Source: Sipunculus nudus (Eukaryota > Annelida > Sipuncula > Golfingiida > Sipunculidae). From it: a DNA stretch of 64,000 nt. How positions within the stretch are numbered: position 1 is the first letter of the stretch; every line of letters starts with the position of its first letter. The position numbers were made by a program, and so were the translations under genes. Below are positions 16,201-25,200 of this stretch, piece by piece. The stretch lies in contig CM049306.1 in NCBI GenBank assembly GCA_026874595.1, positions 75,763,642-75,827,641 of the forward strand. The letters are read 5' to 3'. Below the pieces are notes generated by a model that saw only the letters and a list, made by a program, of their open reading frames with translations, searched no databases and was not told the origin of the DNA.

Positions 16201-19200
16201 ATTCTCTCCTAAAGTTTGCTTGAAAAAAAATATGAAACTGAGCAGATAATTTACAAGATTTAGCTAGCTGAACGGTACAGTTTAAAAAGGCTTTAAAACA
16301 ATTTTCTGTTTCAGAGATATTCTACAATTTAGCAGAACAAATTATTTAGTGATTATTGATATCTTTGCTCGTGATAGATTTTGAAATAGGACTGGGTCCC
16401 AACACTTCTTAACCTAATAAATGTGTGAGTGGGTGGATGTGTCGGTGGATAGGGAATTCAATGATTACCCAGGTGAGTGGGTACATGGATTGGTTCCTGG
16501 ATAGGTTTAACCACAATGTATGTACATGCATGTGTTTATTGTTTATATAGAAATATGCAATTATCTGTGAAACTGTACTTTCATAACCCAGCCCGCATGT
16601 CTTAGAAATTCTACCTAAAGAAAAGAAGTTTTGCCTTTTTTATATTTTCCTATTATCAGTAAGATATGCTTTTCAAAGTTTCATTTTAATTGTTTATAAT
16701 AAACAAGAATTAAACTACTATCCAGGACATCTACTTGCTGCATAGACCTAGAGAATTTATAGAGCATTTTAACGTCAACCACCCATACTGTGCAATGTAC
16801 ATCTTGTTACAAAACTGCACGCTAATTCTGCAGCTCCCTGCCAGTTCACAGAGGTTTATTAAGTCCTCTGTTCTCACATCTACCATGTTATACTTTTACA
16901 TACAGAAGTTAATATGGGAACAAAGACTAACTAATTATTTGAAGTGATGAATGTTGTAAAATACGGAAGAATAATTTTAGCCTATAAGATAATAGGCATT
17001 CTGTGAAAAAAAAGGTCATGATTAGGATGTAATTGATAGTTGCCTTTGTTAATCGAGCGCTTGAAAGTAGCAGGACACTGACTGACTTTCGATATAACTC
17101 AATCAGCCCACCACTAGTTGGTAATGAGTAAATCTGGAAATTAGTTGTTACAGCTGAACTATACACAACCCTCAGGTGGACTGTTTATCTGATCAGCTGT
17201 GAGTTTTACACACCTGACAAAGTAGTACAGAGACTCTAAAGCCACTATATAATAAGTGACAGAATTGGCAGATTCAGAATAGTCATTCAGAATAGGCATC
17301 AAAGCACAATTTCTTGTGTACTGATATACGACTGTGTAATAGTGTATATAAATACTGAAAGGCCATCAAGACTGTCACCCTGGATTACCTAGAATAACAA
17401 ATAAAAAAACTTTCAGCAACTGGAGAATCAACCCACTCTTTTGTGTACCAGAACTGATATCTGACTGTGTAACAGTGTGTATAATATAGGTAATTGTTTT
17501 ATCAATAAATATGCAGAAAAATTGCTTTTTTAATTAAAAGTACTTGTACTTGTACTCAAGTACAGACCCCTGTACTTGTACTTGTACTTGACAAGTTTTA
17601 TTACGTAAACATAATTGTGAGCTGTTTCTGAATTAATGAGAATTTTCTCTTTTAAAGTTTATATGCCAGAGTAAGCCAACCGAAAATTTTCCCTTATTGG
17701 GCCTATTATCGCCCATCCCGCCTCGTTCCCGTGTATCTAGGTCACACTTCCGTTTCCTGTAATCACATTTTTCTTCTGGCGTCAGCCATGATGGACGTGT
17801 GATCATGCTCTGCGCGATTTGTCCATTGTTTTGGTTTCTACAGTCGGGTTTGCCAACTGAATTGTAAGTAGTGATTCTTTTTCCCATCCCGCCATGGAGC
17901 CCTTTACTGTTCTTGTGGTTAATTAATCCCCCCTTGGGATTCTCAACCCACTTGTTTCACCTGCCGTTCCCACAATGACATATGCCGGGGCCCTGCAGAT
18001 CCCTGCTTCTTTTGTCAGCCATGGTCGTCTGACAAATGGGCCATGTTCCATGCCTGGTCCCATTCCCCGGTTGTAGGGGTTCCCCGTACACGGTGCCCTT
18101 ATCTGGTCCTGTTGTTCGTACGGGGGGGGGGGGGGGGTTGGGGGGGGTGGATCCTACCATGGGTGGACGCAACACATCCGTGTTACGTTCCCCATCCATA
18201 TTAACCTGTGCAGTTGCTTCCCGGTAGTTCTCCGCTATATCTCTTTCCTATTCATTCATCACATTCGGCCCCAGTCCGCTTATACCATTTTGAGTAAACT
18301 CTCACGTTCTGCTCTTCCATGGTGTCGGATCTAGACAATTCGTCTAGACCCGCGTCCGTTCGCCCGCTTGCCTCTCCTACCCGGTTCTCGGCCTTCGCCC
18401 GCTGCCCTCCCCGCGGGCCCCCCGCCAGCTTCTTTCTTTGTTCCGGGGCCGGCTGTTGCTGTCACGCTGGCTTCCTCGGGACTTCATAGAGCTGAGGTAG
18501 GTCATTACGCTTTCTTTCAGCTGCCTTGCTTCCTGTGGTTCCTGCTGCTCCGGCGGGCTGCTCTGCAATCCTTGGCCGGCCGGCCACCGCTTTGTTTCAG
18601 ACTACGGCTGCTGTTCCGCGTGCGGTCCTGGTTCCTGTGACTTCTCGGCTCAGTACTGCTGCTGGCCTACCGCGCCTTTTTTTTTTTTTCCAGCCTCCGG
18701 TCGTTCCGGCTACATGGGTTTCCCTGGATCCCCCTTCCTGGGGTTCTCCAGCGTCCCCATCCTCTCTCACAGCCGATCCCTCCCTGGCATAAGATCAGTG
18801 GTTGGTGATCGCACTGCTACGCCCGGCTTGGCGTACGCGCATCTCTCCCGGCCGATCCCGCCCTGGCAAAAGATCAGTGGTCGGCGATCGCGCTGCAATG
18901 CCAGGCTTGGCGTCCGCGCACCTCTGCGCTGATGGACCTCGTTGCTTCACACGGCTGATCCCACCCTGGCATAAGATCAGTGGTCGGCGATCTCGCTGCA
19001 ACGCCAGGATTGGTGTCCGTATATTTGTCAAGGGTCCGCCCATGCCTGTGCTAAACACCGACAGGTTAATTGGCCTATTGTCGTACTTGTGTTTTACTGC
19101 GCCTCTCGGCCTGTATCCATTCATTACGTACCTTGAAACCCGAACTCCGGCTGATTTGGCTGCGCTTTACACTCATCTTTTACGGGGTATCTTAGGCCCT

Positions 19201-22200: not shown

Positions 22201-25200
22201 GACGACGTCTTCGTCTGCTTCCTCGCTGCTGTGGTGTTCCTCTTTCCATCGTTCCTGGTAGGTATCCCCTCCCCAAGGTTTATCTGTTATATTCTCATTA
22301 ATACAGAAACAGCTCACAATTATGTTTACGTAATAAAACCCCCCCATTACCTTCCTGTGAATGGTGATTTTGTTAGTAAACTGGTGTGAGCTTTTCTGTA
22401 TTACAAACAACGCTCCCTCCCAGTCCTCTTGCTTCGCCTTCAAAAAATGTGATTACAGGAAACAGAAGTGTGACCTAGATACACGGGAATGAGGCGGGTT
22501 CTGAAGTACTTGTACTTGTACTCAAGTACTAACCCCCTGTACTTGACCCAAGCCTGGTTTATACAACAGTTCAAAATCTTGTAGTCCTACATAGATGTCA
22601 TTTATATGGTATAAAGACAAAATAATTCTCTGTATAAAGAAGAAAATTTACACATGTTAGATTCTAGTTTATTCAGTTCACAATTCAACAATATTATTTA
22701 GCACAAATTTATTAACATCCATTATCTCCATTAAGGAGAATTTTTTACTTATTATTGTCTGAGAGTATGTAGTTGAAAGGTCTGTTTTCAATCCCTTGCC
22801 TTAAACTTGTTTTCCAGGTTTGTTTTAAGGATGCTGTATTTTCACTGTTAGCCAGGATGAGGTATGGTATGTACTACAACATGCCACTGGTAAGTATAAT
22901 TGCCTTATTTACTCTCATACACTGCCAAACAGTGGTAGGCTTATTTTTCCTGAGGCTAATAAACCCCCATTCACTTATTTTGCCCATAATCCCTTGTTCA
23001 TTAGTGCAGAAGCGACTGTACATTTGTGAATATTCCTTGATGCAATTCCTAAATTCAGACCATGTGCCAGATCTACACCAAATGTAGTCAATTCTTCATT
23101 GACCTGTTTCCGAAATGCCCTAAAAATTACATGAGACTGCCTTCATGATCATATGCCAGTTATGTCCTGAACAACACAGTGACACACACACACACAAACA
23201 CAAGAATGGGGATGAATGCATACCCACATGGTAGAGGCAAAAATAGGTTCGTAGGGCTGGCTATTGCCACCAAATTTTTTATTGCAAAATATATCATAAT
23301 ATCTGGTAGCATATAACATTATATATATACATTTTCATATATATATATATGTCTGTATTTTTATATATAATTATTAAAATTATTATTATTAGTTATTGTT
23401 TATCATGATAAATTCGACAATGTAAATACATGCAGATCAGTTCATATCAAACACTTATTATGAAACTGTTACTTACTAATGTACTTAGTAAGGAACTTAC
23501 TTGTTCTTTGCATAACTGAAAGAAACCTTTAAAATCAAACTTTTCTTTAGGTCTTGCCTGTGCAAATAACTTGTCAATTTGAGAATTATAGAAGGGTTGT
23601 TTAGCAGAGAAATGTATAGGTGGTGTGTAAAATCGCAGCCATGTAACACCTCAAAAGGCTGAGGTTCTTAAACAATAGTACTGTTAATATAAGTTTACAC
23701 TTGATCTTAATGCAGTTTTCATAAGATGTGAGGAGAGAATGATTAATTATTATGACAGTGTGCTGGCCTTCTTTCTTTATGTTGTATTGAAATATCTTTT
23801 TGATACGTGCTAATTTCCTAGAACAAACCTTTGATACTGATGTACATTACAGTATGTTTAAGGATAAAAGTGACATGTTATTTTGCAGATCCCAGGTTGC
23901 TATGGCAGTGGTTTATTTCGTGCCTTTTCACAACATGTTCTTCACAGATTAAATGTACACCAGGAGGGACCATTGGTGAGTTCCTCTGTCAGTCAAGTAA
24001 AATTTGTAGAAAGAATTTATATTTGTTAGAATATGATGCCATAGAGTGTGGGCTTTCATAGACCTCCCCCCCCCCCCCTTAGACATCAATTTTCACTCAG
24101 TTTTTCTGTTAGCCAGGAAAATTATCTGTCATCAGCATGTTTGCCATTGAATTGAGCATAAGCGAAAATAAGGAATTCAAGAAAAATCCATATATTAATG
24201 ACTTAACTCCATAAAAACATAATCCAAGTAAGCAGAAATGTCTATTTAAATATTTTTATGATAACAATTATACATTTGTTAAAATATTGTGTTCTTTCAG
24301 GAATCTAAGATAAGAGTGACATTGCTGTCTCGTGGGACCAAATACAGAAGAATACTAAATGAAAAAGAGGTTAGAATAAACCCTATATCATTTGAAGGTT
24401 TCTTATGTACTTCCAGCAATAACTGCCACTGTGTCAAAAGTAAAGAGGAAAGTTATACAAAAGTGATTCCAGGTTATCTTTATTCTAAAGATTTTAAAAT
24501 ATTTTGCAGTTAACAATGGCACATTTGTATCAAAAGATATAAAAAATATATAAATAATAATAATTTCCGTATCATGCTATATATTTGCTAGATGACAATT
24601 TTTCTTGAAACATGTATGTCTTCCTTCTGCACTTTCTTAAACGTATATTTGTAATTAAATGAGATAAATATATTAGTAACATACACATAGTTTAAACATT
24701 TTCTCAACAGATAGTGTCAGCTATGGAGACTATAGGCGAATTGGAAGTACGAGTGGTTGATTATAATGGGTAAGATTATATTCCTGAATACATCAGCAGC
24801 TAGTCAATTTATAATATTTTTGTTCCCTGCTTCCTGGAAGGGGACACATTGATTTGCGTTTGTATGCCTGTATGTCTGTCTGTCACTCCCTCTGTCTGAG
24901 CGTCCATGATGTCATTAACTTTCCTAAATATTATCTGATTTCATTCAAATTTTGGTCACTGATTGCTCACATGCATAACTTAGTTGGGATTAGTGGTGGG
25001 CCGATCATCGAGTTTTAACGAAAGTCAGTCAGTTTGCTGTCACTTTCAAGCGCTTGATGACCAAAGGCAACTATCAATTACATCATAATAATGATTGTTT
25101 TCTTTCCAGAATGCCTTTATGTTATAGGCAAAAAAGTTTCTTCCATTTTTTACCACATTCTGTGCTTCATATAATGAGTCTGTGTTCCCAAATAACTTGC

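What the first reader, a model, noticed from the sequence alone, without database searches (positions are those of the whole stretch)
17596..22498. DIRS-like retroelement fossil inside EOGT intron 8, with DIRS-style end structure
The sequence shows a GC-rich block with a [17 protein letters not shown] RNase H, a DIRS/Ngaro-type reverse transcriptase and a recombinase-like region. Its two end blocks recur inverted, but in the order A,B at the left and A-inverse,B-inverse at the right. That order is not a simple inverted repeat; it is what a left extension plus internal complementary region would leave. Close identity of the inverted blocks suggests a recent insertion. The copy is broken.
Basis: partly seen in the sequence, partly recalled or inferred. 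Interest (0 to 1): 0.7.

Follow-up and report, generated by a model that had tools for sequence, protein, structure and literature searches.

The report
Truncated DIRS1-like retrotransposon in EOGT intron
A broken copy of a known type of jumping gene (a DIRS1-like retrotransposon) sits inside another repeat in an intron of the EOGT gene; its odd end pattern comes from a lost right end, and it belongs to a group of copies that may have spread although their copying enzyme was already disabled.

Summary
Window 17595-22497 is a plus-strand DIRS1-like tyrosine-recombinase retrotransposon in an EOGT intron. The A,B / A',B' order is real, but it is not a left extension. Other copies in the same genome (15 of 20 fetched have every end piece) show: left ITR (A..B), internal complementary region (A' plus the complement of the right end), right ITR (B'..A'') and a 27-nt right extension. 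In the window, A' is the left half of the internal complementary region, and B' is the inner part of a right ITR that lost about 145 nt. The right half (22347-22398) still matches the right ends kept by 19 other copies. Copies of the hAT-like repeat around it show insertion at a GTT with no duplication or loss at the joint. Sizes match the fish elements GaDIRS1/2 and TnDIRS1a (PMC3266345). One addition: the window and seven other separately inserted copies share a stop codon in the RT catalytic block. They fall in one strongly supported clade for the RH-YR piece, though a weak 5'-piece tree does not recover it. This suggests RT-dead copies multiplied in trans. Overall: a new member of a known kind.

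The parts
17595..17773 (+). left ITR; A block 17595-17643, B block 17717-17772; starts with GTT
18763..19023 (+). three copies of a 79-nt repeat unit inside the 5' (presumed gag) region; recurs in other copies
19759..20052 (+). reverse transcriptase remnant: [13 protein letters not shown] 19759, [22 protein letters not shown] 19912, VLPYLDDW 20029
   Evidence: motif names recalled
19850..19852 (+). stop codon in the RT catalytic block, shared with 7 other fetched copies
20548..20868 (+). RNase H remnant ([33 protein letters not shown])
20941..21356 (+). region after RNase H (GRPEFDLF...), possible decayed methyltransferase region; no profile match
   Evidence: methyltransferase assignment recalled, not shown
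21399..22176 (+). tyrosine recombinase remnant: SLRGYRAAM 21399, [10 protein letters not shown] 21968, VKAPDVRAI 22046, SWMSPSTF 22130, RLYLSDV 22156 (other frame)
   Evidence: motif names recalled
22340..22398 (-). right half of the internal complementary region (rICR), complementary to the right terminus this copy has lost
22498..22500 (+). GTT at the right joint, start of the right flank
16544..17594 (+). left flank: part of a hAT-like repeat (about 2 kb in full copies, end CAGGCTTGGG; identical 8-nt flanks in 3 of 5 copies with both ends found)
22498..22556 (+). right flank: end of the same hAT-like repeat
15400..15519 (+). EOGT exon upstream of the intron holding the element (edges approximate)
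22815..22895 (+). EOGT exon downstream ([25 protein letters not shown])
   Evidence: same probe

Best explanation
It is a dead, right-truncated copy of a DIRS1-like retrotransposon. Shown: other copies have two inverted termini plus an internal region whose left half is complementary to the left end and whose right half is complementary to the right end with its extension. Shown: the window copy sits at a GTT in a hAT-like repeat, with no duplication and no loss at the joint itself. Inferred from the published DIRS model (PMC3266345, passages read): RNA is reverse transcribed, the internal complementary region pairs with both ends, a circle joined at GTT is made, and a tyrosine recombinase inserts it at an NTT site. 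Inferred (about 0.8): after insertion about 145 nt of right ITR and extension were lost by a deletion between two G-rich stretches (..GGCGGG and the terminal G run), which leaves the right flank exact. Inferred, less sure (about 0.6): the copy was already RT-defective when it moved and was mobilised by proteins of related copies. The confidence below is for the first two, shown, parts and the truncation.
For: End anatomy in copies L009-L028; 15 of 20 have all four end pieces. Each ICR half matches its own terminus at 96% (622/648 over 18 sequences, 528/550 over 17) and the other terminus at 81-82% (526/648 and 502/612). The window rICR matches the right ends of 19 other copies at 908/988. Right flanks begin with NTT in 18 of 19 copies with a right end found (13 GTT and 4 ATT by the script, L014 read as ATT by eye, L024 is CTC; the G of GTT cannot be told from the G run). 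Host-repeat copies run through the joint without a gap in 12 of 14 non-window loci. The lost length is 137-139 nt plus the end of the G run in 12 of 13 copies measured, 76 in L010. The truncation is seen only in the window: 28 of 28 other places with the same joint letters continue the ITR, and 338 places have the usual continuation. Stop codon in 8 of 12 readable sequences, all inside one 9-row clade with 100/100 support.
Against: Pfam and PDB profiles did not recognise RT or recombinase; RNase H scores only E 0.02 against PF17917, under its cut-off, with DNA_pol_viral_C next at 0.043. The methyltransferase domain expected in DIRS elements was not demonstrated. The left flank is not wholly identical to the host-repeat copies: in 9 of the 12 it lacks about 25-43 nt of the TACTTG array, placed by the aligner at least 10 nt before the joint, so a small loss near, though not at, the joint is possible. 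In the 9-row clade one member (L017) lacks the stop, and a tree from the 5' piece does not recover the clade. The deletion step has no direct witness, and reads were not available to exclude an assembly error at the G-rich joint.
Confidence: 0.92

Rival explanations
1. The right end was already short when the DNA inserted: an incompletely finished cDNA, never extended on the ICR, was closed at GTT and integrated by the recombinase, so the outer right ITR and extension are dispensable for integration.
For: The right flank starts exactly at GTT with nothing lost on that side, as the recombinase would leave it.
Against: A deletion ending in the terminal G run gives the same joint; no second copy with this end among the 29 places with the joint letters.
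Confidence: 0.15
2. A DIRS element with a true left extension and no right ITR end.
For: Within the window alone, A pairs only with A'.
Against: Other copies have an A'' at the right end (81% to the left end) plus a right extension.
Confidence: 0.02
3. An Ngaro, PAT or VIPER element.
For: RT, RNase H and recombinase motifs of this general kind occur in all YR retroelements (recalled).
Against: Those groups have split direct repeats (PMC4157794 and PMC6681497, passages read); here the terminal repeats are inverted.
Confidence: 0.02
4. The shared RT stop codon is read through, or was spread by gene conversion or recombination, so these copies were not mobilised in trans.
For: L017 inside the clade lacks it; the trees of the two pieces disagree about L010 and L017, which suggests exchange between copies or too little signal.
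Against: Eight separately inserted copies share it (no similarity between left flanks of the 13 sequences compared), and the recombinase Tyr motif is out of frame in 20 of 20 scored sequences.
Confidence: 0.3

Closest known systems
GaDIRS1, GaDIRS2 (stickleback) and TnDIRS1a (Tetraodon), PMC3266345 Table 3
   Same: Start with GTT, circular junction AAC, right extension 26-27 nt (here 27), divergent plus conserved ITR 165-167 nt (here about 175-179), ICR halves 36-46 and 56-57 nt (here at least 36 and about 59), size 5.3-5.9 kb (fetched copies span 3.1-5.6 kb).
   Different: No sequence comparison could be made; the window copy is truncated at the right and is shorter than several other copies inside.
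DIRS-1 of Dictyostelium
   Same: Inverted termini plus an internal complementary region holding the circle junction; right extension (PMC3266345 passages and Table 3; PMC5633606 passage).
   Different: ITR length, junction triplet and size differ (Table 3 row DIRS1-2); distant host.
Ngaro / PAT / VIPER
   Same: RT, RNase H and tyrosine recombinase retroelements.
   Different: Split direct repeats instead of inverted repeats (PMC4157794).

Membership tests
DIRS1-like (PMC3266345, PMC4157794) | Two pairs of inverted repeats: ITRs plus internal complementary regions matching each end | tested here: met
   in other copies of the family; in the window itself the right terminus is lost
DIRS1-like | Right extension complementary only to the right ICR | tested here: met
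   27-nt extension at right ends; right terminus with most of the extension vs rICR 863/884 in 17 copies
DIRS1-like | Insertion at a trinucleotide equal to the circle junction, no target site duplication | tested here: met
   GTT at both joints and empty site in hAT-like copies; NTT right flanks in 18 of 19 copies
DIRS1-like | RT and RNase H on the same strand, upstream of the recombinase | tested here: met
   motif order and strand; motif assignment recalled; RNase H also weakly PF17917, under cut-off
DIRS1-like | Tyrosine recombinase | tested here: inconclusive
   HDVR box and YLSDV motif by eye; no Pfam match and only chance-level PDB matches
DIRS1-like | Methyltransferase domain | tested here: inconclusive
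   no Pfam match in window ORFs or in L026 and L012 ORFs reaching into the region
DIRS1-like, fish group | RT/RH phylogeny within the fish group | not testable with these tools
   no reference elements held
Ngaro / PAT / VIPER | Split direct repeats | tested here: not met
   terminal repeats are inverted
Gypsy / BEL | Long terminal direct repeats | tested here: not met
   the only direct repeats over 16 nt in 16500-23500 are the 79-nt unit and the flanking TACTTG array
Gypsy / BEL | Integrase | tested here: inconclusive
   no integrase match in the 25 ORFs scanned, but RT was not matched either

The most novel reading that the evidence does not exclude
A subfamily of DIRS1-like elements lost its own reverse transcriptase (one shared stop codon) and has its recombinase Tyr motif out of frame, yet multiplied to many separate insertions by using proteins of related copies: a natural case of trans-mobilised DIRS.
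Probability: 0.6. Interest if true: 0.4.

Novelty: new member of a known kind. Interest (0 to 1): 0.25.

Why it matters
For most readers it is an ordinary genomic fossil. It is useful in two ways. It is a worked case in which the ICR keeps the memory of a lost terminus and the hAT-like host repeat supplies the empty site, which illustrates the published DIRS insertion model. If the RT-stop clade really spread in trans, DIRS elements can be parasitised by their own dead copies, as is known for other retroelements (for example TRE5-A in Dictyostelium, PMC5633606 passage). Three searches of the held library (4 of 4 papers listed, 20 of 69 listed, 10 of 55 listed) showed no title or abstract start that says this for DIRS; that is not proof of absence.

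Tried and rejected
Left extension: rejected by the right ends of other copies. Recurrent short right end: the same joint letters occur at 28 other places, but all 28 are point changes or small indels inside a continuing ITR; only truncations at this one point, next to TT, would have been seen. Profile searches for RT, methyltransferase and recombinase in Pfam and PDB gave nothing usable. EOGT by family PF04577 did not reach the window; tblastn with a recalled protein did. The 5'-piece tree (18 rows, 2 of 15 inner branches well supported) does not recover the stop clade. The cross-control compared the wrong orientation and is replaced; the right-end score counted five extra letters and is replaced. 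The L014 triplet was read by eye, as stated.

Rows dropped: 20 of the 40 other RNase H matches were fetched, the best-ranked ones. L027 was left out of the tree because its span is over 2,600 nt; L019 fills only 38% of its columns. The stop codon was readable in 12 of 21 sequences, 1 showed a gap and 8 did not align. L025 could not be scored for the recombinase frame. Flank independence was tested on 13 of 21 sequences, the eight stop-bearing ones included.

Full report
Observation. The block 17595-22497 stands out by base composition and carries two inverted pairs, A (48 of 49) and B (54 of 56), far beyond shuffled sequence (longest exact match 36 nt against at most 16 in 100 shuffles). RT, RNase H and recombinase motifs lie on the plus strand in that order, with frames broken. 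The motif names are recalled; the only profile support is a weak RNase H match (PF17917, E 0.02, under its cut-off).

Gene context. Seven coding pieces were found upstream of the element, so 'intron 8' is possible but not verified. The assembly has 1.43 Gb. I did not identify the species; that it is a vertebrate is an inference.

Other copies. A 501-nt RNase H query finds 41 places in the same genome, the window included (40 of 455 candidates scored, so a lower bound). I read the best 20 of the 40 others. Fifteen of the 20 have all four end pieces; L012 lacks the left end, L015 the right ICR half, L017 the left ICR half, L025 both halves and L026 the right end, and L010 has a gap inside its right ITR. 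The layout is: left ITR starting GTT (16 of 18 rows; L014, L025 and L026 read CTT, ATT and ATT), coding region, the complement of the left end directly followed by the complement of the right end, then the right ITR and a 27-nt extension ending in a G run, followed by NTT. Each ICR half agrees with its own end (96%) better than with the other end (81-82%). This is the structure that PMC3266345 (passages, and section 10) describes for DIRS1-like elements, and the sizes are close to those of its fish elements.

A' is the left ICR half. B' is the inner part of the right ITR, which in the window stops at 22497. About 145 nt that other copies have are absent (137-139 nt plus the end of the G run in 12 of 13 measured). 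The window's right ICR half still matches the right ends of 19 other copies (908 of 988).

Insertion site. The flanks belong to one hAT-like repeat with many copies; 3 of 5 copies with both ends found by pattern show identical 8-nt flanks. Joined flanks run through 12 of 14 non-window copies without a gap at the joint; the triplet there is ATT in 11 and GTT in 1. Of the other two, L036 aligned with gaps and L031 did not cover the joint. In 9 of the 12 the window's left flank lacks about 25-43 nt of the repetitive TACTTG array, placed at least 10 nt before the joint. So there is no duplication and no loss at the joint, and the right flank is intact although the element's right end is not. The simplest reading is a deletion between ..GGCGGG and the terminal G run. 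Integration of a short cDNA is not excluded. No other place with the joint letters shares this end (28 of 28 continue the ITR).

A defective lineage. In the RT block LDLPDA-CHVPF the window has a stop codon at 19850. Of 12 sequences where it can be read, 8 have the stop and 4 a sense codon. In a genome-wide pattern search 9 of 17 exact matches have the stop. In a tree of 20 rows from RNase H to recombinase, a region that excludes this codon, all 8 lie in one 9-row clade (100/100), the ninth row being L017 with the sense codon. The 500-nt left flanks of 13 sequences, including all 8, show no similarity to each other, so they are separate insertions. A second tree from the 5' piece does not resolve the clade, places L018 apart and groups L010 with L017, which points to exchange between copies or too little signal. 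In the recombinase, the box W..SP.TF and the YLSDV motif lie in different frames in 20 of 20 scored sequences (the same offset in 19), and 23 of 23 genome-wide pattern matches have the same spacing. Together these suggest that copies lacking working proteins of their own were spread by proteins of related copies. Read-through or gene conversion remain possible.

Age. Three of 105 paired end positions differ in the window; its terminal branch in the RNase H-recombinase tree is 0.039. Insertion is thus fairly but not strikingly recent; no absolute date is given because the host and its rate are unknown.

Verdict. Papers: PMC3266345 passages and section 10; PMC5941688, PMC4157794, PMC6681497, PMC9210276, PMC8498967 and PMC5633606 passages only; all others seen as listings.

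Noticed in passing
16544-17594 and 22498-22556: hAT-like repeat, about 2 kb in full copies, many copies in the genome; its left part is not found in the window before 16544.
   Followed up: partly
18122, 20975, 21893 and L009-L028: G or C runs of 9-27 nt occur at roughly corresponding places in many copies (by eye), also inside the recombinase region, and vary in length.
   Followed up: no
18763-19023: 79-nt tandem unit in the 5' coding region, apparently variable between copies.
   Followed up: no
17595-22497: Strong strand asymmetry of the element: AT skew -0.34 to -0.47 and negative GC skew over 18-22 kb.
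   Followed up: no
5927-6673 and 55845-56401: Tandem repeats with units of 278 and 279 nt elsewhere in the window.
   Followed up: no
C1:75368783-75369073 of the same genome: Best PF04577 glycosyltransferase match about 0.4 Mb upstream of the window, in a 530-aa open frame.
   Followed up: no
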